From Roseovarius sp. (GTDB taxonomy: Bacteria > Pseudomonadota > Alphaproteobacteria > Rhodobacterales > Rhodobacteraceae), in contig SLDH01000159.1 of NCBI GenBank assembly GCA_007125415.1, positions 1-17,107 on the forward strand: a stretch of 17,107 nt of DNA. The letters are read 5' to 3'. This document shows, one piece after another, positions 6,277-16,964 of the stretch. Numbering within the stretch: the stretch's first letter is position 1; every line of letters begins with the position of its first letter. The notes under the pieces were generated by a model. That model was not told the DNA's origin. It saw nothing but the letters and a program-made list of their open reading frames with translations, and ran no database searches. The translations under genes were made by a program, and so were the position numbers.

Positions 6277-6957
6277 TTAGCGGCTATCCTTCAAATGCAA
6301 CGCAGCCATTGCCTTGGCATGACGCGCATATTCTGGATTCCCGCTGATCTGTGCAGCGACGATCGCGCCATCCATCAGCAAAGTGAAATACTCAACTGTC
6401 AAGCGCGGGTCTTTCACCCCCAGGATTTCGGCTTGGGCGGCGACCCAACCATTGAGATGTGATTTATGCGCCCGGATGATCGTGCGCAGCCGGGAATTGT
6501 CGATGTCGAATTCACCCGCTGCGTTGATGAACGGGCAGCCGAAGAAATGCGGGTCAGAAAACCAGCATTCCAGAATGTCGAACATCGCCAGAAGCCTGCC
6601 CTCTGCCGTGGCGTTTGTCTTACCCATTTCAGTGAAGAACCAGGATCGCCACGCCGCCCCTTCTCGTTCCAGCACTGCCTCGATCAGCCCGTCCTTGTTG
6701 CCGAAATGCTTGTAGAGCGATGTCTTTGCCGTGCCTGCCCGCCGCGCGATGGCATCGACGCCTGTGGCCTGGAATCCTGCATGGCAAAAAAGCCAGGACG
6801 CTGCAGCCAGCAGCCTCTCGGATGTCGTGTCTGCATAGCGCGCAGAACAGACCGTCCCTGCGCCAAGGCATAGCGTCTCCACAGGCATGGGCGCTGCATC
6901 ATCGCGCGCCTCGCCCACGCCAAGTTGAGGGGCTTCGATACCTGTCACGGAGTCCAT
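6277..6957 (-). CDS. TetR/AcrR-family transcriptional repressor
   Basis: The product is 226 residues from the ATG complementary to 6955-6957. An alternative TTG start at 7020 would place the 16-bp palindrome at 6997-7012 inside the coding region, so the inner start is preferred; it has AGGAG (complement of 6969-6973) 11 nt upstream. Seen: TSERLLAAASWLFCHAGFQATGVDAIARRAGTAKTSLYKHFGNKDGLIEAVL when read through, a classical TetR helix-turn-helix with LYKHFGNKD as the recognition/helix-4 signature. The remainder is the ligand-binding helical domain, with FGCPFINAAGEF typical of a YxaF/LmrA-like subgroup. It is divergent from the ABC transporter/cyanase operon and separated by about 340 bp, so it is the prime candidate regulator of that operon. 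The ligand is unknown. Confidence 0.9.
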   Translation of the reverse strand: MDSVTGIEAPQLGVGEARDDAAPMPVETLCLGAGTVCSARYADTTSERLLAAASWLFCHAGFQATGVDAIARRAGTAKTSLYKHFGNKDGLIEAVLEREGAAWRSWFFTEMGKTNATAEGRLLAMFDILECWFSDPHFFGCPFINAAGEFDIDNSRLRTIIRAHKSHLNGWVAAQAEILGVKDPRLTVEYFTLLMDGAIVAAQISGNPEYARHAKAMAALHLKDSR

Positions 6958-6996
6958 CGTTGCCGTCACTCCTGAAATACTGTCCCGTGATGTTGT

Positions 6997-7012
6997 GATA
7001 CAGAACTGTATC
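6997..7012. promoter_or_regulatory. Perfect 16-bp palindrome, candidate TetR operator
   Basis: GATACAG-aa-CTGTATC is a perfect inverted repeat with 7-bp arms, sited 40 bp upstream of the preferred TetR start. Size, symmetry and location are typical of TetR autoregulatory operators. Another TACAG lies at 7021-7025. Binding is inferred. Confidence 0.65.
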
Positions 7013-7293
7013 AAGGCCAATACAGAAAAGAAAAGAAAATCTGAAGTGATGCCGAATCATGCAACAAGATAAGACACCGACCGGTATCTATTTTTGGGGC
7101 ATTCCCACACCTATCATGCGCTGCTCTGATTCAGGAATGCACGAATGAAAGGCAGATATTCCGCATATTACGCATATTTTTCTGATATCTTCCAAAATCA
7201 AGGTTCGAAAACGTCTTGGACCGATTTCAGCTAGACAACACAGATCGGTATCTTCACCTTTGATGTAGATAAAGACATGAAGGAATGCCGATC
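7013..7293. promoter_or_regulatory. Divergent control region between TetR gene and importer operon
   Basis: This is an AT-richer region without genes. It contains three head-to-tail 9-bp units starting ATATT at 7156, 7165 and 7174, and a near-repeat gaccggtatct (7079-7089) / gatcggtatct (7243-7253). The GTATC ends of the latter resemble the half-site of the palindrome at 6997-7012. The operon promoter must lie here, but no convincing -35/-10 pair can be assigned by eye. Confidence 0.45.
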
Positions 7294-8157
7294 ATGACAG
7301 CGCAAAGCACGTTCCGGGCCTCCGCCGCGCTGGATGCGCAGGACCAAAATGTTCTACCGTTGCCGCATGCCACAGCGGAAGCTGTGCCGGACACCATGGT
7401 GAAACCCGGTCGACTCGGGGCGCATGTGCAGGTTGACGCTCTCACGCACCGCTATAAGGGCATGTCACATAATTGCCTTGAGGAGCTAAATTTTCAGGTC
7501 GAAGCGGGGCAGATCGTGGCGCTGGTGGGGCGCTCGGGATGTGGCAAGTCCACCTTGCTGCATCTTATCGCGGGCTTGATGCAGCCTGGCGCGGGTGGGG
7601 TCTATATCAATGGCAACCGCGTGCGCAGCACATGTCCGCGCTGGGTGGTCATGTTCCAGGCTCCGTCCCTCTTTCCCTGGATGACCGTGGCGCAGAATGC
7701 AGCCCTCGGCCTGCGTTTTGCCGGACGCACACAGGAGATCCCCAAACGCATCCCGTCCCTTTTGGCGATGGTGGGGCTGACGGCTTATGCAGACCGCAAT
7801 GTGCAGGATCTGTCAGGCGGTCAACAGCAGCGCGTGGCACTTGCGCGCTCGCTTGCCACCGAACCCGATCTGTTGTTGCTCGATGAACCCTTCTCGGCGC
7901 TTGATGCTTTTACCCGCCGCGCTCTGCAGCAGGATGTGCGCCGCATCGCCAAGGAATTGGGTCTGACTGTTGTGCTCGTTACTCATGACATTACCGAAGC
8001 CGCAATCATGGCTGATCGCGCGCTGATCATGGCCCCTGATCCCGGTCGCATCGTGACCGATACAGTGCTGGACCCTGGCGCAGACCGCCATCGCGACAGC
8101 CCCGCTTTTGAAGCCGAACGCGCGCGCCTCGCAGCCTTGTTCGAAACAACGGCCTGA
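7294..8157 (+). CDS. ABC transporter ATP-binding protein (nitrate/sulfonate/taurine class)
   Basis: This is the ATPase of the importer, 287 residues from the ATG at 7294. That ATG is preferred over the in-frame ATG at 7285 because aagga (about 7280-7284) is then spaced 8-9 nt from the start. All nucleotide-binding motifs are intact: Walker A GRSGCGKST (79-87), Q-loop Q122 in MFQAPSLFPWMTV, signature LSGGQQQR (173-180), Walker B LLLLDEP (193-199), and switch H231 in VTHD. The LFPWMTV segment and overall form match the SsuB/TauB/NrtD group. It carries about 40 extra N-terminal residues before the first strand. It is the first gene of the operon, with the binding protein 29 bp downstream. Substrate specificity cannot be read from the ATPase. 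Confidence 0.93.
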   Translation: MTAQSTFRASAALDAQDQNVLPLPHATAEAVPDTMVKPGRLGAHVQVDALTHRYKGMSHNCLEELNFQVEAGQIVALVGRSGCGKSTLLHLIAGLMQPGAGGVYINGNRVRSTCPRWVVMFQAPSLFPWMTVAQNAALGLRFAGRTQEIPKRIPSLLAMVGLTAYADRNVQDLSGGQQQRVALARSLATEPDLLLLDEPFSALDAFTRRALQQDVRRIAKELGLTVVLVTHDITEAAIMADRALIMAPDPGRIVTDTVLDPGADRHRDSPAFEAERARLAALFETTA

Positions 8158-8186
8158 ATGCTCTTACCCTGTCAAGGAGAACCGAC

Positions 8187-9437
8187 ATGAATCAGGATGA
8201 TCTACGCCGCGCTGAAATCAAATGGGCGATGGAGGCTTACAGTGGCGACTATTCCCGCCGCGGTGCGCTCAATCTCTTTGCCAAGGGCGGGCTGTTCGCG
8301 GGTCTGTCCGGGCTTCTGTCGAGCTTGCCGCAGATGTCCTATGCGCAGGAAGACGAAGTTGTGCGCATCGGCTATCTGCCGATCACGGATGCCACAGCGC
8401 TGCTGGTGGCCCATGCCAATGGCTACTTCGCGGATGAAGGGCTGGATGCTGCCGACCCGACCCTGATCCGGGGTTGGGCCCCGCTGATCGAAGGGTTTGT
8501 CGCCAATCGCTTCAATCTGGCCCACTTTCTGAACCCGATCCCGATTTGGATGCGTTACAACAACAATTTCCCGGTCAAAGTTCTGGCCTGGGCGCATACC
8601 AACGGCTCTGGCGTGGTTGTGGGCGAGCATACGGATGTCACGGATTTCCGCGGCCTTGGCGGCAAACAGGTTGCGATCCCGTTCTGGTATTCGATGCATA
8701 ACATCGTGCTGCAATTCGCCTTGCGCGAGTCAGGCATCACGCCCGTCATCCGGGACCAGTCTGCGCCTCTGGCCGACAATGAATGCAACCTCATGGTGAT
8801 GCAGCCGCCCGAGATGCCACCCGCCTTGGCTGCGCGCTCGATCGACGCCTACATCGTGGCAGAACCCTTCAACGCCATGGGCGAGGTTCTAGCGGGCGCA
8901 CGGATGCTGCGCTTCACCGGCGATATCTGGAAGAATCACCCGTGCTGTGTTGTGGCCACACATGAAGAAGCCGTCACTGCGCGGCCCGAATGGGTGCAGG
9001 CTGTGACCAATGCGGTCGTGCGCGGTGCGATCTATGCCTCGCAGAACAAGGCGGAAGTCGCCCATATGATCAGCCGTGACGGGCGCGGCTACCTGCCTGC
9101 CCCGTCCGAAGTGGTGCTGCGCGCCATGACCCATATCGACAGCGAAGAATATATCGCCTCTGGCGCACTCACCCATACCGATTGGGGCAGCGGGCGGATC
9201 GATTTCCAGCCCTGGCCCTATCCGAGCGCCGATGCGCTGACCGTCACATATCTGCGCGACACTGTCGTGTCCGGCGATGCGGCTTTCCTGGCCGATCTGG
9301 ACCCGGCTTTCGTGTCCGAGGATCTGGTCGACCGCCGTTTCGTGCGCAACGCGGTCGAGAATTTCCCTGAATGGCTGAATGACCCGTCCGTGAATCCCGG
9401 CGATCCGTTCAACCGCCAAGAGGTTCTGTCGCTGTGA
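8187..9437 (+). CDS. ABC transporter substrate-binding protein, NrtA/SsuA/TauA (NMT1-like) family, Tat-exported
   Basis: The 416-residue periplasmic receptor is preceded by caaggaga. A twin-arginine signal is visible (SRRGALNLF, residues 23-31), followed by a hydrophobic stretch (GGLFAGLSGLLSSL) and a probable cleavage site near SYAQE (52-55); the 22-residue N-region before the RR is long. The mature part begins VVRIGYLPITDATALLVAHANGYF, the family hallmark, and includes VAEPFNAMGE and a Cys pair in NHPCCVV. The Tat export and form resemble nitrate/cyanate/bicarbonate receptors (NrtA, CynA, CmpA) about as much as sulfonate receptors. With cyanase in the same operon, a small N- and/or S-containing anion is a reasonable ligand, but this is inference. 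Its last base pairs overlap the permease start. Confidence 0.9.
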   Translation: MNQDDLRRAEIKWAMEAYSGDYSRRGALNLFAKGGLFAGLSGLLSSLPQMSYAQEDEVVRIGYLPITDATALLVAHANGYFADEGLDAADPTLIRGWAPLIEGFVANRFNLAHFLNPIPIWMRYNNNFPVKVLAWAHTNGSGVVVGEHTDVTDFRGLGGKQVAIPFWYSMHNIVLQFALRESGITPVIRDQSAPLADNECNLMVMQPPEMPPALAARSIDAYIVAEPFNAMGEVLAGARMLRFTGDIWKNHPCCVVATHEEAVTARPEWVQAVTNAVVRGAIYASQNKAEVAHMISRDGRGYLPAPSEVVLRAMTHIDSEEYIASGALTHTDWGSGRIDFQPWPYPSADALTVTYLRDTVVSGDAAFLADLDPAFVSEDLVDRRFVRNAVENFPEWLNDPSVNPGDPFNRQEVLSL

Positions 9438-10276
9438 CCGATGCTGCCTATTCCCAAGCTGAACAATCATCTGCAAGCGAGACAGGGGCGCGTGTCGCCG
9501 CGCTGAAACTCTGGCTGCGCAGCGTGACCATCGCAGCACTGGGTCTGGGTGCACTCGGTGCGCTCTGGGCGCTTGGGGGCTGGTATATTTCCCAGACCCC
9601 CGGCATGCGCGCCTTCGCACAATTGGCCCCTGTCCCGACTTTCGAGCGGCTCTGGGTCATGCTCCAGCGTGGCGAGGTCTGGGCCATGTCGGCACCAAGC
9701 CTCTACCGCGTTGGCTGGGGTCTGGGGATCGCGATTATGGTGGGCGTGCCGATGGGCATTCTCATCGGTCGGCTGGCATGGCTGCGTGACCTGTCCAATG
9801 CGCCCTTCCAGTTGCTGCGCATGATCTCGCCGCTCAGTTGGATGCCGATTGCGGTAATGGCCTTTGCGACCTGGGACGGCGCGATCATCTTTTTGATCTT
9901 CGTCGCAGCCGTTTGGCCGATCATGTTCGCTACAGCCGCAGGCGTGAAGCGCATCGATCCGGCCTGGCTGAAGGTATCCCGCAATCTGGGTGCGAACCCG
10001 CTGCATCAGCTGATCTACGTCATTCTGCCCGCGATTGCGCAAGACATCATGACGGGCATCCGTCTGGCCCTCGGGATTGCTTGGGTGGTGCTGGTTCCGG
10101 CTGAATATCTGGGCGTATCCTCGGGCCTTGGCTTTGCCATCAACGATGCGCGCGACTCTCTCGATTACGCACGTCTGGGCGCAACGGTGCTGGTTATCGG
10201 CATCATTGGCTACGTGCTCGATTCTCTGTGTCTGCTGGCGATCAAACGCTTCAGCTGGCTGCGCAGTGATACCTGA
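9434..10276 (+). CDS. ABC transporter permease (SsuC/TauC/NrtB class)
   Basis: This 280-residue inner-membrane protein is the transmembrane partner of the two preceding products. It starts with GTG at 9434, overlapping the binding-protein stop by 4 bp (GTGA), indicating translational coupling; aagagg lies upstream at suitable distance. About six hydrophobic helices are visible, starting at residues 31-50. The cytoplasmic EAA loop that contacts the ATPase is at about 184-204 (NLGANPLHQLIYVILPA). Length and layout are normal for single-permease importers of this class. It is followed by a 26-bp gap to the OsmC-family gene. Confidence 0.92.
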   Translation: MTDAAYSQAEQSSASETGARVAALKLWLRSVTIAALGLGALGALWALGGWYISQTPGMRAFAQLAPVPTFERLWVMLQRGEVWAMSAPSLYRVGWGLGIAIMVGVPMGILIGRLAWLRDLSNAPFQLLRMISPLSWMPIAVMAFATWDGAIIFLIFVAAVWPIMFATAAGVKRIDPAWLKVSRNLGANPLHQLIYVILPAIAQDIMTGIRLALGIAWVVLVPAEYLGVSSGLGFAINDARDSLDYARLGATVLVIGIIGYVLDSLCLLAIKRFSWLRSDT

Positions 10277-10302
10277 ACCCAATCTTGAAAAGGAGGACTA
10301 CC

Positions 10303-10839
10303 ATGGGTGAACCCGCAACCGTTCTGACAGGATGTCTGGCCCCGATCGACAAGACCGGGCTGGACGGACTGATCGAGAAAGGCAAGGCAGATCCGAAAGC
10401 AGTGAAAACGCTCAGCTGCAAGACGGTCGCCGAGGGCCGCTTCCGTCACGCGAATTACATTCGCGACCTGCCGCCCTATATCGTGGACGAACCGCCCGGT
10501 CTCTTGGGCGATGACACGGCACCGAACCCGTCCGAGGCTTCGCTGGCCGCGCTTGGTTCCTGCGTCTGCGTGGGGCTGCATGCCAACGCCGTGCATCGCG
10601 GCATCACGGTCCAGAAGCTGGAAATCGAGATGGAGGCAGACCTGAACATCACGTCGGTCTGGGGCACTGGCGACACGTCAGAGAAGCCGGTCGGTTTCAC
10701 CGACGTGCGCATGAAAGTCATCATGGAAGCCGATGCGCCCCAGGAGGTGATCGACGAGCTGATCGCGCATGTCGCGAAGTGGTCGCCGGTGTTCAACACC
10801 TTCTCGCGCCCGGTGAACATGGAAATCACTGCTGCGTGA
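10303..10839 (+). CDS. OsmC-family protein
   Basis: The product is 178 residues from the ATG at 10303, chosen because aaggagg (10290-10296) sits 6 nt upstream. The OsmC core is clear: NPSEASLAALGSCVCVGLHANAVHRGI (about 75-101 when read through) with the peroxidatic-position Cys (C87; C89 also present), E78, and a closing SPVFNTFSRPV (161-171). Classical OsmC/Ohr peroxidases have a second Cys at the start of that last motif; here it is S161. So it is probably not a standard Ohr-type dithiol peroxidase. Family members act on hydroperoxides or on sulfane-sulfur species; placement beside a sulfurtransferase makes a sulfur-relay or persulfide role attractive but unproven. It sits between importer and flavoprotein in the operon. 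Confidence 0.85.
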   Translation: MGEPATVLTGCLAPIDKTGLDGLIEKGKADPKAVKTLSCKTVAEGRFRHANYIRDLPPYIVDEPPGLLGDDTAPNPSEASLAALGSCVCVGLHANAVHRGITVQKLEIEMEADLNITSVWGTGDTSEKPVGFTDVRMKVIMEADAPQEVIDELIAHVAKWSPVFNTFSRPVNMEITAA

Positions 10840-10847
10840 TCCTTTCG

Positions 10848-10879
10848 TCGAGGCCATGGCCATGCGGCCGTGGCCTCGA
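10848..10879 (+). other. Intra-operon hairpin
   Basis: A 14-bp inverted repeat (tcgaggccatggcc / ggccgtggcctcga, one wobble position) encloses a 4-nt loop, starting 9 bp after the OsmC stop. The downstream run (ccaaccattttctt) is only a weak T-tract. It may be a partial terminator or an mRNA processing/stability element that sets lower expression of the genes after it. Confidence 0.65.
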
Positions 10880-10944
10880 TCCAACCATTTTCTTCGATGT
10901 CTGAGCACGACAGGCCATCGCACAAACCCTGACAGGAGTTGCTC

Positions 10945-12090
10945 ATGTCCCTAGACCTTGCCGCTGAAACACTTGTGCCGCCACTGGATTTGCCGGATGC
11001 GGATCTTGTGCTGTCTGAAGCCGACCGCATCTCGGCAAGTGAACTTCTGCCACTGGTCCGCGCAATCGACACCGACGGGCTTTATCCCGAAGCCGTAATG
11101 CGCAGCTTTGGTGCTGCAGGGGCGTATCAGCGGCATCTGCCCGCCCCCGGTGGCGTGCTAGATCTGGACACTACCATCGCTGCCATGACGCGCGCGGGTC
11201 GTGAATGCCTGTCGACTGCGTTCTGCATGTGGTGTCAGTCGGCGCTGGGATGGTATATCTTCAACTCCGAGAATACAGCGCTGCATGCGAGCCTCGGCGT
11301 AGATGTGGCCACAGGGCGCGTCCTCGGCGGCACTGGCCTGTCCAACCCTATGAAAACCCTGTTCGGAATCGAGCAGATGAAACTGAAGGCCACCCCGGTC
11401 GAGGGCGGCTACACGCTGCGCGGCACGCTGCCCTGGGTCAGCAATATTGGTGAAGATTGCTGGTTTGCGGTGATCAGCGAAATCCCGGCAGGTCCGCGCG
11501 CCGGCGAGCGCGTGATGATGGTGCTGCATGGAAGCGGCGATGGGGTCAAACTGGTCTCGAACGACCATTTCGTGGCACTCGAAGGCACTCGCACCTATGG
11601 CGTGCAATGCCGCGATTCCTTTGTCCCCGATGCGCATGTCATCGCCGATCCGATCAATGCCTATGTGCCGAAGATCCGGGCCGGGTTCATCCTGCTGCAG
11701 TCGGGCATGGCATTCGGTATGATCGAAGGCTGCATTGCCCTGATGGAGCAAGTGCGTGGCCCACTAGGTCATGTGAACCAGCACCTGCCGGACCAGCCGG
11801 AAGATTTCCGCGCCAAGCTGGACGTGCTGAAGACCGAAGTCTCTGAGCTTTGCAAGACACCCTATGACACATCGGACGCGTATTTCATCCGCGTGATCAA
11901 GGCACGACTGGCGGCTGGGGATCTGTCGGTTGCTGCGGCGCATAACGCGATGCTGCATCAGGGCGCGCGCGGGTATGTCACGCATGGCGCAGCGCAACGG
12001 CGTCTGCGCGAGAGTTATTTCTGCGCGATCGTGACCCCGGCGACGAAGCAATTGCGCAAGATGCTCGCCGATATGGGGGCAGAGGCCTGA
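10945..12090 (+). CDS. Acyl-CoA dehydrogenase-fold flavoprotein, probable non-dehydrogenase
   Basis: The product is 381 residues from the ATG at 10945, preceded by caggag (10933-10938); a TTG at 10939 overlaps that site and is rejected. The ACAD layout is recognisable: an N-terminal helical domain, a middle beta domain with GGTGLSNPMKTLFGIE (128-143) and RGTLPWVSNIGED (159-171), and a C-terminal helical bundle with HQGARGYVTHGAAQRRLRES (338-357). At the position where many acyl-CoA dehydrogenases have the catalytic Glu (IYEGT), this protein has IVTPAT (362-367), with Thr/Pro instead. ACAD-fold enzymes lacking that base include flavin-dependent monooxygenases and related oxidases. I infer an oxidation or oxygenation step on the imported compound; the actual reaction is unknown. 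An ACAD using a base elsewhere remains possible. Confidence 0.8.
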   Translation: MSLDLAAETLVPPLDLPDADLVLSEADRISASELLPLVRAIDTDGLYPEAVMRSFGAAGAYQRHLPAPGGVLDLDTTIAAMTRAGRECLSTAFCMWCQSALGWYIFNSENTALHASLGVDVATGRVLGGTGLSNPMKTLFGIEQMKLKATPVEGGYTLRGTLPWVSNIGEDCWFAVISEIPAGPRAGERVMMVLHGSGDGVKLVSNDHFVALEGTRTYGVQCRDSFVPDAHVIADPINAYVPKIRAGFILLQSGMAFGMIEGCIALMEQVRGPLGHVNQHLPDQPEDFRAKLDVLKTEVSELCKTPYDTSDAYFIRVIKARLAAGDLSVAAAHNAMLHQGARGYVTHGAAQRRLRESYFCAIVTPATKQLRKMLADMGAEA

Positions 12091-12127
12091 CCACTCCGGA
12101 GCACACTCAGATCAGAAAGGAAAGCAA

Positions 12128-12976
12128 ATGACGGATGCACTGATTACTGCAGACCAGTTGAACGCCATGGACAATGTCGTGATCATCGACACGCGCGCGC
12201 CGGAAGCCTATGCGGCAGGCCATATTCCCGGTGCTGTCAACCTGCATGAGATCTTCACATTTCTTGCAACGTCGGATGCAAAGGGCATTGCGGAAATGAC
12301 CGAAACCTTCGCTTCGGCATTCGGAGCCGCGGGTTTGTCAGGCGCTGAAACTGCCGTGATCTATGAGGGGTCGATGAATACTGGCTTCGGCCAGTCCTGC
12401 CGGGGGTTTTTCCTGCTCGATTTCCTTGGCTACCCGAAGAAGGCCGTGCTTGATGGCGGTTTTGAGGCTTGGCAAGTCGCCGGATTGCCGGTAGATACGG
12501 CGCCGGTCTCGCCAGAGCCCACAACATTCCCGATCGATCCGTCCGGGGCCTCGGTCCTGCTGACGCGTGATGAAATGCTGGCGGCGCTGGAAAGCGGCGA
12601 TGCTGCGATCCTTGATGTGCGCGATGTTGATGAGTGGATCGGCGAAAGCTCGTCGCCCTATGGCAAGGATTTCTGCCCCCGCAAGGGGCGCATTCCCGGC
12701 GCTCGCTGGATTGAATGGTATCGCCTGATGAAGCCCACGGCAGAAGGGCCGCGCTTGAAATCCGCCGACGAGGTGCTTGCCGAATTGGCCACTGTCGGCA
12801 TCAGCCCAAGCATGCCGGTCTACCTTTACTGCTTCAAGGGTGCGCGCGCCTCGAACAGCTATCTGGCCCTGAAACAGGCCGGGGTATCGGACGTGCGCAT
12901 TTATTTCGGCAGTTGGAACGAGTGGTCGCGTGACCCGTCCCTGCCGATCGAAGAGGGGCGCCCTTACGCGTCCTGA
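12128..12976 (+). CDS. Two-domain rhodanese-type sulfurtransferase
   Basis: The 282-residue product has two rhodanese domains, as in thiosulfate:cyanide or 3-mercaptopyruvate sulfurtransferases. The N-terminal domain (about 1-120; VVIIDTRAPEAYAAGHIPGAVNL) lacks a canonical active-site loop. The C-terminal domain (about 140-282) carries ILDVRDVDEW, RIPGARWIEW and the active-site loop C235-FKGARAS, then YFGSWNEWSRD, a hallmark of this family. The basic CxKGxx loop is closer to thiosulfate sulfurtransferase (CRKGV) than to the CG(S)GV loop of mercaptopyruvate enzymes. No signal peptide is seen, so it is probably cytoplasmic. A gaaagga site precedes the ATG. Its place next to cyanase suggests it accepts or moves sulfur released while the cyanate moiety is formed (inference). 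Confidence 0.88.
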   Translation: MTDALITADQLNAMDNVVIIDTRAPEAYAAGHIPGAVNLHEIFTFLATSDAKGIAEMTETFASAFGAAGLSGAETAVIYEGSMNTGFGQSCRGFFLLDFLGYPKKAVLDGGFEAWQVAGLPVDTAPVSPEPTTFPIDPSGASVLLTRDEMLAALESGDAAILDVRDVDEWIGESSSPYGKDFCPRKGRIPGARWIEWYRLMKPTAEGPRLKSADEVLAELATVGISPSMPVYLYCFKGARASNSYLALKQAGVSDVRIYFGSWNEWSRDPSLPIEEGRPYAS

Positions 12977-13014
12977 CCTCTCTAATCTTCCTCAGCAGAC
13001 AAGGAACGAGACAC

Positions 13015-13485
13015 ATGAAAGACTCCCCCTTCACAGAGCCGATGATGACCAAGGACGATGTCGCTGCCATGGTTCTGGTGGCGAAAAAGAAGCTTGGAAT
13101 GACATGGGCCGAGATCGCCGAGAAGACTGGAAAATCACCCGTCTTCACGCATTCTGCGGCCATGGGCCTGAATTCCATGCCGGAAGACGCCGCGCGTAAT
13201 CTCGTCACGGCGTTGGACCTGCCCGAAGAAGCGGTCGGGGTCCTGATGGAATATCCAACCAAGATCTGGGAACAGGCGGTGCCGACGGATCCCTGTATCT
13301 ATCGCCTGTATGAGATTGTTGGTGTCTATGGCCCGACCATGAAAGCCATTATTCAGGAAGAATTCGGTGACGGCATCATGTCCGCGATCGATTTCGATAT
13401 GATTATCAGCCGTGTAGAGCACCCGAAGGGCGATCGCGTGAAGGTCGAGATGACGGGCAAGTTCCTGAAATACAACGACTGGTGA
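13015..13485 (+). CDS. cynS: Cyanate hydratase (cyanase)
   Basis: Cyanase converts cyanate and bicarbonate to ammonia and two CO2 (through carbamate) and works as a decamer of dimers. The 156-residue product is exactly family length, with an N-terminal helix-turn-helix-like domain (MTWAEIAEKTGKSPVFTHSAAMG) and the C-terminal catalytic domain. The catalytic residues are present as R97 and E100 in YRLYEIVGVYGPTMK and S123 in GIMSAIDF, matching R96/E99/S122 of E. coli CynS. The C-terminal KFLKYNDW ending is typical. An aaggaa site precedes the ATG. No carbonic anhydrase gene (cynT) or CynR adjoins it; instead it is in an operon with an importer and sulfur genes, which sets it apart from the E. 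coli cyn operon. Confidence 0.97.
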   Translation: MKDSPFTEPMMTKDDVAAMVLVAKKKLGMTWAEIAEKTGKSPVFTHSAAMGLNSMPEDAARNLVTALDLPEEAVGVLMEYPTKIWEQAVPTDPCIYRLYEIVGVYGPTMKAIIQEEFGDGIMSAIDFDMIISRVEHPKGDRVKVEMTGKFLKYNDW

Positions 13486-13493
13486 AACCGACT

Positions 13494-13520
13494 GCTGCGC
13501 AAGGCCAGACCTTGCGCAGC
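13494..13520 (+). other. Perfect hairpin between cynS and reductase gene
   Basis: GCTGCGCAAGG and its exact complement CCTTGCGCAGC (11 bp) enclose the loop ccaga, 8 bp after the cynS stop. No T-tract follows. It favours a reductase start downstream of it and may tune expression of the last gene. Confidence 0.7.
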
Positions 13521-13550
13521 ATCATGGCAGGCGGACGCAGAACAAAGACA

Positions 13551-14789
13551 ATGACGCAGGAAAAAGTAGAATTGCTTGTGATCGGGGCAGGTCAAGCCGC
13601 AGTCACACTTGTCGAGACACTCCGGCGTGCAGGCGACATGCGGCGGATCACGATCTTGGGCGAGGAACCCTATCCCCCTTATCAGCGCCCGCCGCTTTCC
13701 AAGGCCTATCTGTCTGGTAAGCTGGAGAAGGAGCGCCTTTGGCTAAAGCCGCGCGCTTGGTATCTTGAGAATGATATCACGCTTCTGACCGGACGCAGGG
13801 CGCGTGCCATTGATGCGAAAGCGCGCACGGTCCTTTGCGAAGATGGACGCCGCTTCGGCTACGAAGCGCTGGTCATGGCGACGGGCAGTCGCCCCCGCCG
13901 TTTCCCGAGTGAGTTGGGCGGGGACTTGCGCGGTGTTCACACAATTCGTGGGCTGGATGACATTGAGCGTCTGTCCACCGATCTGGCGCATGCACGCTGC
14001 CTTTTGGTAATCGGCGGCGGTTATATTGGTCTTGAAGCGGCCGCGATCGCGCGGGCTTACGGGATAGAGGTTACGCTCGTCGAAGCAGGCCCGCGTATCC
14101 TGGCGCGAGTTGCCTGTGAAACGACGGCAACAATGGTGCGGGATCTGCACTGCGCCAAAGGTGTCACCATACGCGAGGGCGTGGGTGTGGATCAAATTGG
14201 CGGCGACAACTTCGGAACAGTGGCTGAGGTCCGTCTCAGCGATGGGACGTCATGCCCTGCTGATCTTGTGATTGTCGGGATCGGTGCAGTGGCAAACGAC
14301 ACACTTGCACGCGATGCCGGGCTGGATTGTCTGGAGTCCCCTGGGGGCGGCATCCTTGTGGATACTCAATGCGTCACCTCCGACCCTGCAATTCATGCGA
14401 TCGGAGATGTCGCGGCTTTCCCCTTTTCGGGGCGCAGAATACGACTGGAAAGCGTGCAGAATGCCTGTGATCAAGCGCGCGCGTTGGCCGGTCGATTTCT
14501 AGGGGCCGGGGCTTGCTATGTGCCGACACCATGGTTCTGGTCTGATCAATACGACATGAAATTGCAGATCGCAGGCCTGAGCGTCGGGGCGGACCGCACA
14601 GTCTTCCGACCTGGACCAAAACCCGGAGCGGGCTCAGTCTGGTATTTCTGCGGCACACGGCTCGTCGCGATTGACGCTCTGTCTGATCCACGCGCTTACA
14701 TGACTGGCAAACGCTGGTTGGAACAGGGCGTATCGCCTTGTGCAGATCAGATTAGCAACCCGCAGGCAGACTTGAAGGCTGCGGTTTGA
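13551..14789 (+). CDS. FAD/NAD(P)-dependent ferredoxin-type reductase (rhodocoxin/putidaredoxin reductase family)
   Basis: The product is 412 residues from the ATG at 13551, where family homology starts (VELLVIGAGQAA). A GTG at 13482 overlapping the cynS stop would add 23 residues and would read through the hairpin at 13494-13520, so it is disfavoured, though no strong ribosome site marks either start. Seen: FAD-binding GAGQAA (12-17), PPYQRPPLSKAYL (42-54) typical of oxygenase-coupled reductases, an NAD(P)-binding VIGGGYIGLEAA (153-164), and the second FAD motif AIGDVAAF (283-290). Such enzymes pass electrons from NAD(P)H to a small ferredoxin serving a P450 or oxygenase. No ferredoxin or P450 gene is in the window, so the partner must be encoded elsewhere or be the operon's flavoprotein. 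It is the last gene of the operon. Confidence 0.88.
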   Translation: MTQEKVELLVIGAGQAAVTLVETLRRAGDMRRITILGEEPYPPYQRPPLSKAYLSGKLEKERLWLKPRAWYLENDITLLTGRRARAIDAKARTVLCEDGRRFGYEALVMATGSRPRRFPSELGGDLRGVHTIRGLDDIERLSTDLAHARCLLVIGGGYIGLEAAAIARAYGIEVTLVEAGPRILARVACETTATMVRDLHCAKGVTIREGVGVDQIGGDNFGTVAEVRLSDGTSCPADLVIVGIGAVANDTLARDAGLDCLESPGGGILVDTQCVTSDPAIHAIGDVAAFPFSGRRIRLESVQNACDQARALAGRFLGAGACYVPTPWFWSDQYDMKLQIAGLSVGADRTVFRPGPKPGAGSVWYFCGTRLVAIDALSDPRAYMTGKRWLEQGVSPCADQISNPQADLKAAV

Positions 14790-15630: not shown

Positions 15631-16563
15631 TCAGAACATGCCGAACGTGGGCAGCTTCTCTAGTGCGGCGCGCTCTTCCTCCTCCTCGGTAAGTGGCCTG
15701 TCTACCGGCTCGGCTTGCGGCTGGACCGGATCAGGGACGGGGACGGGGACGGGGACGGGGACTGGTGTAGAAACAGGCGGCTCGGCTTCGAGGACCACGT
15801 TCCCGTTCTGGTCCAGCCGTTCCCCGACGGTATTGTCATTGGCGATTTCCTCGCGCTCCCGGAGAATAGCCTCGGCTGCTGCCCGCGGCCTGCGAACACC
15901 GTCCCGGGTCCAGCGCCTTCTCTGGCCGGTGAGGATGCCGTGCAGGTTGAGAAGATCCGCGAGTTTCTGGTGCGAAAGACTGTGTCGAAAGGGAACGGTT
16001 TCCATGATCCGCACGATGTCCAGCACGCGACGGTCAGCCTCCTCTTTGCGTGCCTTCACAGAGGCTGCGGCTGCCTTGACGCGACCGGAATGGTCACTGA
16101 AGACTATGCCCTCGGCCTGCTTCTGGGCAAGTGCGTCCGAAGTTCCCTGGCGGATGTTCTGGACAGTCTCAGCGCCCTTGGCAACCGCTTTGAGGATAGC
16201 ACGCTTACTTAGAACACTCCCCTTGTGAGCCGAGAAGATCGGTATGTCATAAATCTTGAGAAACTCGCGCGCGGCCTCGACGTTCCTGAACAGACGGGTT
16301 GGTTCCGGGATGACGAGAACTGCGTTCTTTGACTGCGCTTCGTCTGCTGCTACCTTGAGTTCTTCCCGGCGAACCAGACCCTGAGGATCGGCCCCTGAGG
16401 CGACGTCTCGATAGATTCCGAGAAGGGTCATCCCGCGCTGCGCGCAGGCTTTTCTGATGCTCTCTGCCTGTCTTTCGAGATTCTTGTCGTCTACTGCCTG
16501 CTTCTCTGTTGAGACTCTGATGTAACCTATTGCAGATATGGGGTTATCTCGTGTGATCTTCAT
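15631..16563 (-). CDS. Serine recombinase (resolvase/invertase family)
   Basis: The product is 310 residues if started at the ATG complementary to 16561-16563, where homology begins (ISAIGYIRVSTEKQ). The frame is open to 16734, but the extra residues look unrelated and no good ribosome site was found for any start. The catalytic Ser is S18 in YIRVSTEKQ. The Arg-bearing segment is VIPEPTRLFRNVEAAREFL, where PTRLFRN replaces the usual LDRLSRN. The C-terminal part has LADLLNLHGILTGQRRRWTRDGVRR, a trace of the recombinase domain, but the zinc-ribbon and long coiled region of large serine integrases are missing. The tail has alternating Pro-Val residues and an acidic LTEEEEERAALEKL stretch. The family breaks and rejoins DNA at paired sites. 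Its target is unknown; the neighbouring inverted repeats and R1/R2 are candidates only by position. Confidence 0.82.
   Translation of the reverse strand: MKITRDNPISAIGYIRVSTEKQAVDDKNLERQAESIRKACAQRGMTLLGIYRDVASGADPQGLVRREELKVAADEAQSKNAVLVIPEPTRLFRNVEAAREFLKIYDIPIFSAHKGSVLSKRAILKAVAKGAETVQNIRQGTSDALAQKQAEGIVFSDHSGRVKAAAASVKARKEEADRRVLDIVRIMETVPFRHSLSHQKLADLLNLHGILTGQRRRWTRDGVRRPRAAAEAILREREEIANDNTVGERLDQNGNVVLEAEPPVSTPVPVPVPVPVPDPVQPQAEPVDRPLTEEEEERAALEKLPTFGMF
15734..15762. repeat. Tandem hexanucleotide repeat (GGGGAC)n inside recombinase gene
   Basis: Five near-perfect GGGGAC units on the plus strand encode the alternating Pro-Val run of the recombinase tail. As 6-bp units they change protein length without changing frame. 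Five successive G runs also give the plus strand G-quadruplex potential. Confidence 0.9.
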
Positions 16564-16964
16564 GATGTGGGGGCTCTGTGAGGGGGTGAGCAACAACGGG
16601 CGATCTCGCATCGGGAAATGGGCGGAATCCACGCCATCCATACGCTGCCGGAGCATCAACACAAGCGGTATTTCGGAGGTGCGGATCAGCAAATAGTGAT
16701 GGCCCGACAGACACGAGTGGCGGAACATCAGCAAAACCGACGCGTGCGTTTCGGCGCGATGCCGGTGACAGTGGCGAGTATCAGAAAACGAGCTTGTCCC
16801 AACATCGCGTCTCCACCATGGCGATGCTTCGACAATGGCTTAAGAACGTGTCCCGAGTGCATTAGCTGCCTTAGCTTGATAGCCGTAGCCTTGCCTTGAT
16901 AGCCTCGCACGAAAGTCGGGCGCTCCCCGTCGACGCGTCCGGAAGGCGCAACAAGGAGAGACCA
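16564..16964. other. Divergent interval between recombinase and mgtE-like gene
   Basis: No convincing gene. It contains a direct repeat CTTGATAGCC at 16875-16884 and 16895-16904, spaced 20 bp start to start (about two helical turns), some 60-90 bp before the MgtE-like start. The 16728-17072 minus-strand frame and the 16618-16899 plus-strand frame show no family resemblance. Confidence 0.5.

What the first reader, a model, noticed from the sequence alone, without database searches (positions are those of the whole stretch)
7294..14789. Candidate new importer-linked sulfur/cyanate catabolic operon
Eight tightly spaced genes on one strand encode a nitrate/sulfonate-class ABC importer, an OsmC-family protein, an ACAD-fold flavoprotein, a rhodanese-type sulfurtransferase, cyanase and a ferredoxin-type reductase. 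Each family is known; the combination is not that of a cynTSX or cynABDS locus, nor of thiocyanate hydrolase (scnABC) or copper thiocyanate dehydrogenase loci that I know. A coherent reading is uptake of a compound carrying both sulfur and a C-N unit (thiocyanate or an organic/iso-thiocyanate), oxidative attack by the flavoprotein with electrons from the reductase, sulfur capture by OsmC/rhodanese, and cyanate cleavage to NH3 and CO2. The substrate and reaction order are inference.
Basis: partly seen in the sequence, partly recalled or inferred. Interest (0 to 1): 0.85.

Follow-up and report, generated by a model that had tools for sequence, protein, structure and literature searches.

The report
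Operon likely splitting thiocyanate to cyanate
A soda-lake type bacterium carries a recurrent gene set that probably imports thiocyanate, strips off its sulfur with an unusual flavin enzyme, and turns the leftover cyanate into ammonia; the substrate has still to be proved at the bench.

Summary
The eight genes are real and in the order reported. The fixed core is the pair OsmC–ACAD-type flavoprotein, often with an NrtA-class importer, in Rhodobacteraceae, Methylorubrum, Marinobacter and Aliarcobacter among others. Cyanase is linked to it far above chance: 10 of 10 other same-family genomes with the flavoprotein have a cyanase, against 29 of 284 without it, and cyanases of separate lineages sit beside it. 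The sulfur side is served by a two-domain rhodanese or, in another clade, a Blh-like persulfide dioxygenase; the electron side by two different kinds of NAD(P)H reductase. A distant paralogous operon type in Staphylococcus aureus is sulfide-repressed (PMC5480029). Best reading: reductase-fed oxidative cleavage of thiocyanate, sulfane sulfur to OsmC and rhodanese, cyanate to cyanase. The substrate is inferred, not shown. Against it: Methylorubrum thiocyanatum, the one reported thiocyanate user noted among the loci, also has thiocyanate hydrolase, and the nearest relative with a species name (L012) has no rhodanese or cyanase in its cluster. If true, this is a new flavin-based entry into the cyanate pathway.

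The parts
6277..6957 (-). TetR-family regulator, divergent (ORF can extend to 7020)
   Evidence: TetR_N over Pfam cut-off; same cluster in 28 of 49 loci
6996..7013 (.). perfect palindrome TGATACAG-AA-CTGTATCA, probable TetR operator
   Evidence: motif ACAGR(0-6)YCTGT, chosen, in 15 of 28 TetR/operon intergenic regions against a shuffled mean of 0.1; the only site in the genome with up to 2 mismatches, while the reversed control pattern gave 2 per strand
7285..8157 (+). ABC importer ATPase
   Evidence: ABC_tran
8187..9437 (+). substrate-binding protein of the nitrate/bicarbonate (NrtA/CmpA) class; start region holds SRRGALNLF, twin-arginine-like by eye
   Evidence: NMT1_2; model (mean pLDDT 80) best matched by NrtA 2g29, third by S. 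aureus 3un6
9434..10276 (+). ABC importer permease
   Evidence: BPD_transp_1
10303..10839 (+). OsmC-family protein; one invariant Cys (C87), usual second Cys replaced by invariant Ser (S161)
   Evidence: PF02566; alignment of 26; alignment to a solved OsmC protein (9wo1)
10840..10944 (+). spacer with strong stem-loop (mRNA processing or stabiliser, inferred)
   Evidence: fold z -3.7, 0 of 200 shuffles as good (bases 10830-10950); stem-loops of different sequence in many relatives
10945..12090 (+). ACAD-fold flavoprotein, Thr (T366) where acyl-CoA dehydrogenases have the catalytic Glu; proposed C-S cleaving oxygenase
   Evidence: Acyl-CoA_dh_N; model pLDDT 92; nearest solved folds are ACADs, 14-20% identity in the 50 listed; T366 invariant
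12128..12976 (+). two-domain rhodanese-type sulfurtransferase, C91, C183 and C235 invariant
   Evidence: PF00581, two stretches; alignment of 27; nearest solved: thiosulfate sulfurtransferases
13015..13485 (+). cyanase (cynS)
   Evidence: TIGR00673 158.1 bits, cut-off 113.3; R97, E100 and S123 invariant in 22
13551..14789 (+). BphA4-type ferredoxin--NAD(P)+ reductase
   Evidence: Pyr_redox_2 + Reductase_C

Best explanation
A thiocyanate-assimilation operon. (1) The NrtA-class ABC importer takes up SCN-, a small monovalent anion (inferred). (2) The ACAD-fold flavoprotein, re-reduced by the NAD(P)H-linked ferredoxin-type reductase, oxidises the sulfur of SCN- with O2, so that the C-S bond is cleaved and cyanate is released (inferred). 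(3) The sulfur leaves at the sulfane/sulfenate level, is caught on the invariant Cys of OsmC as a persulfide, and is passed to the rhodanese for cysteine synthesis or further oxidation (inferred). (4) Cyanase turns cyanate plus bicarbonate into NH3 and CO2 (known chemistry of the family). The cell gains N and S and avoids cyanate toxicity. A local TetR protein probably represses the operon. Shown here: gene content, conservation, linkage to cyanase and to sulfane-sulfur enzymes, a Thr in place of the ACAD catalytic Glu, a Ser in place of the second OsmC Cys. Not shown: any activity or substrate.
For: Cyanate as product. Family sample: flavoprotein in 11 of 295 genomes, all 11 with cyanase (10 of 10 without the own genome) against 29 of 284 without it, Fisher p 6e-10. 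Phylum sample: 12 of 15 against 57 of 382, p 1e-7; genomes are treated as independent in both tests. Cyanase lies in the same 17-19 kb stretch in 8 of 10 family genomes and within 10.5 kb in 9 of the 12 phylum genomes that have both. Of the 27 of 48 loci with no cyanase in the stretch, 20 genomes were checked and 16 have one elsewhere. Linked cyanases fall in separate lineages: 13 label changes on a 57-row tree, at least 4 forced by starred branches. Sulfur: rhodanese in 27 of 49 loci; Blh-type persulfide dioxygenase after the reductase in L111 and L112, a shorter relative after cynS in L058; in Aliarcobacter L045 a PALP-family, cysteine-synthase-like gene two genes after the core. Reductants: BphA4-type reductase in 12 of 49, or a rubredoxin-fused NAD oxidoreductase in L058, L110, L111, L112. 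Family role: S. aureus SA0165-SA0169, of the type of L063, are listed as CymR-regulated and sulfide-repressed (PMC5480029; L063); a further paralogue lies near cysK on plasmid pANL. Precedent for OsmC in sulfane metabolism: an OsmC-like gene clusters with SQR, a lactamase-rhodanese fusion and a rhodanese in Rhodococcus MI2, induced on a disulfide substrate (PMC5157978, passages).
Against: M. thiocyanatum (L046), titled in a reference list as growing on thiocyanate or cyanate as sole N source, has the core but also a thiocyanate hydrolase gamma subunit over its NCBIfam cut-off, so its growth does not need this system. Roseinatronobacter thiooxidans (L012), the nearest relative with a species name, has no rhodanese or cyanase in the cluster, though a cyanase elsewhere. 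4 of 20 genomes checked (L024, L037, L043, Aliarcobacter L045) have no cyanase. No flavin reductase or ferredoxin is among the eight genes. The flavoprotein is nearest to ordinary short-chain ACADs; the oxygenase XiaF (function recalled) matches only weakly. Cyanate also arises from urea and carbamoyl phosphate (PMC5596200, passage), so cyanase has other uses. Nothing here binds or measures thiocyanate.
Confidence: 0.55

Rival explanations
1. Same chemistry, other substrate: an organic compound with an N-C-S unit (isothiocyanate, organic thiocyanate, thiocarbamate, thiourea derivative) is imported and cleaved, and cyanate is one of its products.
For: A DsbA-like/kappa-GST type protein (annotated 2-hydroxychromene-2-carboxylate isomerase in L052) follows the rhodanese in 9 of 49 loci, fitting an electrophile; the importer superfamily includes sulfonate and taurine binders.
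Against: An organic compound would leave an organic residue, and I recognised no shared gene for one (not every neighbour was annotated). The binding protein is nearest to nitrate and bicarbonate binders, with SsuA/TauA lower.
Confidence: 0.2
2. General organosulfur or sulfonate scavenging: the core supplies sulfur only, and cyanase sits there to detoxify cyanate or because both are starvation genes.
For: Core-only versions with neither rhodanese nor cyanase nearby (L013, L037-L039, L041-L047, L049, L050); the paralogous family (CMD- or SCO4226-like protein plus ACAD plus ABC) is sulfur-regulated in S. aureus and has no cyanase hit in the 9 loci scanned.
Against: Genomes with the paralogue alone show no linkage: cyanase in 4 of 8, none within 99 kb, whereas cyanases of several lineages stand beside the OsmC type. 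A bystander would hardly be recruited again and again.
Confidence: 0.13
3. Cyanide handling: the flavoprotein oxidises HCN to cyanate (a cyanide monooxygenase), cyanase finishes, and rhodanese turns part of it to thiocyanate.
For: Rhodanese and cyanase are classical cyanide genes (established knowledge); reductase-fed flavoprotein.
Against: HCN diffuses and needs no importer (established knowledge). Persulfide dioxygenase and cysteine-synthase-like neighbours fit a sulfur source better. Linked cyanide-resistance genes were not searched for.
Confidence: 0.06
4. Cyanate-uptake operon: the ABC importer carries cyanate to cyanase and the other genes are unrelated passengers.
For: In other loci a second importer of the same class precedes cynS directly (its binding-protein cluster SBP_8 is in 15 of 49).
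Against: Where both importers exist the window-type one keeps to OsmC–flavoprotein (L017-L019, L021, L022, L034, L048), and it stays there where no cyanase is near (L037-L039, L041-L047, L049, L050).
Confidence: 0.06

Closest known systems
Cyanate pathway of thiocyanate oxidation (copper thiocyanate dehydrogenase, Thioalkalivibrio)
   Same: Net logic: SCN- to cyanate plus sulfane-level sulfur
   Different: TcDH is an enzyme of autotrophic sulfur oxidisers (PMC5328954 and PMC6382920, passages read; copper recalled; periplasm from a listed abstract, PMC9456337). Here an ACAD-fold protein with importer, reductase and OsmC.
Carbonyl sulfide pathway (thiocyanate hydrolase scnABC)
   Same: Thiocyanate as N source
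   Different: Nitrile-hydratase-like cobalt enzyme giving COS + NH3, not cyanate; absent from the window operon. The one NHase-alpha gene found in the 87% complete window genome is nitrile hydratase by cut-offs.
Heterotrophic thiocyanate use giving ammonia and tetrathionate (Stratford et al. 1994; title and summary passage seen in PMC6172326)
   Same: Thiocyanate as N source of a heterotroph by a proposed cyanate route
   Different: The passage seen names cyanase for the second step and no gene for the first; whether that strain has the present genes is unknown.
cynTSX / cynABDS cyanate loci
   Same: cynS with a small-anion ABC importer
   Different: No OsmC, flavoprotein, rhodanese or reductase in those loci (recalled); in relatives such an importer is an additional module beside this one.
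S. aureus SA0165-SA0169 type / Synechococcus pANL operon type
   Same: ABC of the same class plus ACAD-like flavoprotein plus a small helper protein; sulfur-regulated in S. aureus
   Different: Helper is SCO4226-like or CMD instead of OsmC; flavoprotein 26-29% identical; no cyanase or reductase hit in the 9 loci scanned, and one weak rhodanese hit (31%, 4.8 kb away, L121).
DszC / SfnB flavin monooxygenases of ACAD fold
   Same: ACAD-related proteins applied to sulfur acquisition (recalled; SfnB passages in PMC11852219)
   Different: No DszC is named among the 60 of 64 PDB matches shown; no flavin reductase among the eight genes.

Membership tests
Acyl-CoA dehydrogenase (as an enzyme) | ACAD fold | tested here: met
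   model pLDDT 92; top 50 matches are ACADs with TMq 0.71-0.83
Acyl-CoA dehydrogenase (as an enzyme) | catalytic Glu at the short-chain ACAD position (position recalled) | tested here: not met
   invariant T366, by extending the SCAD alignment by hand past its printed end
Acyl-CoA dehydrogenase (as an enzyme) | ETF or acyl-CoA pathway genes nearby | tested here: inconclusive
   none recognised among shared clusters; one-off acyl-CoA genes in L036 and L052; most one-off neighbours not annotated
OsmC/Ohr peroxidase | two redox cysteines | tested here: not met
   C87 invariant, second position is invariant S161 in 26 sequences
Cyanase | family score and catalytic Arg/Glu/Ser (recalled) | tested here: met
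Thiocyanate hydrolase scnABC | cobalt NHase-like gamma subunit | tested here: not met
   no such Pfam match among the eight genes; the genome's NHase-alpha is below the TIGR03887 cut-off and above that of nitrile hydratase
Thiocyanate dehydrogenase (TcDH) | copper enzyme homologue | tested here: inconclusive
   none of the eight genes has such a Pfam match; the rest of the genome was not searched for TcDH
Ssu/Tau sulfonate utilisation | SsuD or TauD oxygenase beside the importer | tested here: not met
   no such match among the eight genes
Ssu/Tau sulfonate utilisation | binding protein over the SsuA-family cut-off | tested here: not met
   TIGR01728 90.8 bits, cut-off 163.5
Cyanate pathway of thiocyanate use | SCN- converted to cyanate | not testable with these tools
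   needs enzyme assay

The most novel reading that the evidence does not exclude
A third, flavin-dependent enzyme type for primary thiocyanate degradation: an ACAD-fold oxygenase working with an OsmC sulfur acceptor that uses a single conserved cysteine, spread by modular recruitment of different cyanases, sulfur enzymes and reductases. It may be the so far unassigned gene set behind thiocyanate use as N/S source by some heterotrophs.
Probability: 0.5. Interest if true: 0.85.

Novelty: new variant of a known kind. Interest (0 to 1): 0.72.

Why it matters
[quoted passage not shown] In a thiocyanate-fed microbial fuel cell, cyanase transcripts were found but no thiocyanate dehydrogenase transcripts (PMC6172326, passage), so room for another first enzyme exists. 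A widespread flavoprotein route would give a marker gene for thiocyanate turnover in soda lakes, roseobacters and polluted water, and a new sulfur chemistry for the ACAD fold and for OsmC proteins. It can be tested with a few purified proteins.

Tried and rejected
Considered and rejected: chance neighbourhood (refuted); ordinary fatty-acid ACAD (Thr in place of the catalytic Glu; no shared acyl-CoA genes recognised); M. thiocyanatum as physiological proof (withdrawn after finding thiocyanate hydrolase). Led nowhere: NCBIfam for the flavoprotein (0 families). Ten paper searches showed no paper describing this gene set, judged from listings and from passages of 11 papers; most listed papers were not opened and the library is open-access only, so absence from print is not shown. 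The recalled role of Synechococcus CysR in thiocyanate use could not be checked (papers not held).

Limits: the genome scan is seeded and finds close relatives only. The first ORF caller picked antisense ORFs and was replaced. A labelling slip inflates the c5 and c10 counts (36, 12); the counts used are those (28, 9). Trees are 'quick' trees with long branches flagged. On the cyanase tree the linked label is only mildly clustered (13 changes, shuffled mean 16.7, 16 of 500 as low). On the flavoprotein tree the cyanase label changes 13 times, but loci cut by contig ends were scored as without, so that count is inflated. Five of the ten other family-sample regions (L122, L123, L124, L128, L129) match contig lengths and layouts of loci, so the two sets overlap. 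PMC5480029 itself labels SA0169 as a formate dehydrogenase; in L063 the gene after the permease is the ACAD and the next one looks like a formate dehydrogenase.
Full report
OBSERVATION. The window is a contig of a 3.09 Mb, 87% complete genome; its closest flavoprotein relatives are Natronohydrobacter MAGs, Roseinatronobacter and Roseibaca. The + strand carries ATPase, binding protein, permease, OsmC, ACAD-type flavoprotein, two-domain rhodanese, cyanase and BphA4-type reductase at 7285-14789, with small gaps. A TetR-family gene is divergent.

CONSERVATION. A seeded scan of the species-genome collection with the flavoprotein gave 48 loci. By tblastn OsmC stands just before the flavoprotein in 47 of 48; the contig of the exception, L027, begins at the flavoprotein gene. 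With the window added, gene clustering gave, of 49 loci: flavoprotein 49, OsmC 46, rhodanese 27, cyanase 22, TetR 28, reductase 12 (several loci are cut by contig ends and not all rows are independent). The full eight in order were called in L006, L008 and the window, and by tblastn appear in L106, L127 and L131 at 50-54% flavoprotein identity. So the cluster is neither a single-strain oddity nor always complete: L012 has importer-OsmC-flavoprotein-reductase only, L004 and L010 have cyanase but no rhodanese, and L007 keeps only a short remnant resembling the rhodanese start.

CLADES. Several arrangements recur: the window type; importer-OsmC-flavoprotein alone (Methylorubrum group, Methylocystis, Aliarcobacter); OsmC-flavoprotein-rhodanese, with or without the window-type importer, near a second importer of the same class that precedes cyanase (called CynABD-like here from its place); and OsmC-flavoprotein-rubredoxin::NAD oxidoreductase (rubredoxin by Pfam in L058, L110, L111, L112; by annotation in L055), with varying sets of a GAF/sigma-54 regulator (L058, L112 by Pfam), second importer, cyanase and persulfide-dioxygenase-like protein. 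Marinobacter L054 has the window-type importer, a sigma-54 regulator, OsmC, flavoprotein, a FAD oxidoreductase and cyanase (annotation). In Moraxella L056 an annotated CMD-family protein stands in the OsmC place.

CYANASE LINK. Phylum sample, 398 genomes: orthologous flavoprotein (E below 1e-100) in 16, cyanase in 70, both in 13; without the own genome 12 of 15 against 57 of 382. Of the three without cyanase, G338 has a CMD protein instead of OsmC (L116), G106 (L115) has one resembling the CMD protein of L059, and G187 is a core-only cluster. In 9 of the 12 the two genes lie within 10.5 kb; in 3 they are on different contigs. Family sample, 295 genomes: flavoprotein in 11, cyanase in 40, all 11 shared; 10 of 10 against 29 of 284 without the own genome; 8 of the 10 are linked. 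Control: the paralogous flavoprotein alone (E 1e-57 to 1e-50) occurs in 8 phylum genomes; 4 have cyanase, none within 99 kb. On a tree of 57 cyanases, 37 in the stretch of a flavoprotein and 20 background, linked ones fall in several lineages (13 changes, at least 4 forced): the window's and those of L106, L127 and L131, in the same operon slot, lie on opposite sides of a split with 100% SH-aLRT. On the 84-row flavoprotein tree the cyanase label also changes 13 times, an inflated count because cut loci were scored as without.

SULFUR LINK. The rhodanese carries three invariant cysteines in 27 sequences (C91, C183, C235) and is nearest to thiosulfate sulfurtransferases. In L111 and L112 the gene after the reductase is a Blh-like persulfide dioxygenase domain (383 and 389 bits to NF040641, below that model's 625-bit cut-off, matching its part from about position 140 on; nearest solved proteins for L111 are 9g8t and 4ysk). 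Aliarcobacter L045 has after the core a solute-binding protein and a PALP-family protein that looks like cysteine synthase. The gene content of L063 (SCO4226-like, ABC, ACAD) fits S. aureus SA0165-SA0169, which PMC5480029 lists as CymR-regulated and 11.5- to 34-fold repressed by sulfide (passages read). The identity is inferred from order and type; that paper labels SA0169 a formate dehydrogenase.

MECHANISM. The flavoprotein model is confident and ACAD-like. Extending the SCAD alignment by hand puts invariant T366 where the catalytic Glu stands in SCAD (position recalled). OsmC keeps one invariant Cys; the second is Ser. Two different kinds of NAD(P)H reductase beside the same flavoprotein argue that it is fed electrons, as an oxygenase would be; running in reverse as a dehydrogenase is not excluded. 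The binding protein is of the NrtA/CmpA class, which suits a small anion. Together these favour SCN- to cyanate plus sulfane sulfur. This step is inference.

AGAINST. M. thiocyanatum has thiocyanate hydrolase as well as the core. 4 of 20 core-bearing genomes checked have no cyanase. PMC5328954 states that inferring the cyanate pathway from cyanase activity is not valid, since cyanase also lies beside a thiocyanate hydrolase (passage); this applies here too. Cyanate has other intracellular sources (PMC5596200, passage). NHase-alpha genes occur in 9 of 21 genomes checked; only two were classified: nitrile hydratase in the window genome, thiocyanate hydrolase in M. thiocyanatum. TcDH was not searched for in these genomes.

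REGULATION. A palindrome ACAGR-N(0-6)-YCTGT, chosen after looking at the regions, lies between TetR and the operon in 15 of 28 loci against a mean of 0.1 in shuffles; the window copy is at 6996-7013 and is the only one in the genome with up to 2 mismatches.

LITERATURE. Ten full-text searches (listed under tried and rejected) showed no paper describing this gene set, judged from listings and passages; only open-access papers are held. Verdict: a real, recurrent, modular system; thiocyanate is the most likely but unproven substrate.

Noticed in passing
window 10840-10944: Strong stem-loop between OsmC and the flavoprotein gene; many relatives carry stem-loops of quite different sequence at the same place, which may mean conserved differential expression of upstream and downstream genes.
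   Followed up: partly
window 6996-7013: Probable TetR operator, motif shared by many relatives.
   Followed up: partly
window 15631-16734 (-): Resolvase-type recombinase gene downstream of the operon; the region may be mobile. Relatives of the operon lie on plasmids of Pseudosulfitobacter, Methylocystis and Marinobacter.
   Followed up: no
L154 93-509 and L022/L034/L048 (cluster c18): A HupE/UreJ-like membrane protein lies near the thiocyanate hydrolase genes of M. thiocyanatum and, with a CobW-like GTPase, near cynS in three Rhodobacteraceae loci; names given from sequence, not from a family search.
   Followed up: no
L063: A record deposited as a Staphylococcus phage holds chromosome-like sulfur-transport and formate-dehydrogenase-like genes; probably host DNA.
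   Followed up: no
L059 (N. gonorrhoeae) and L115: Flavoprotein relative beside a CMD-family protein (Pfam for L059) with no importer, rhodanese or cyanase hit in the stretch; the two gonococcal 'plasmid' records are chromosome-sized.
   Followed up: partly
L024 5199-5804 (cluster c10): DsbA/kappa-GST-like protein follows the rhodanese in 9 of 49 loci; role unknown.
   Followed up: partly
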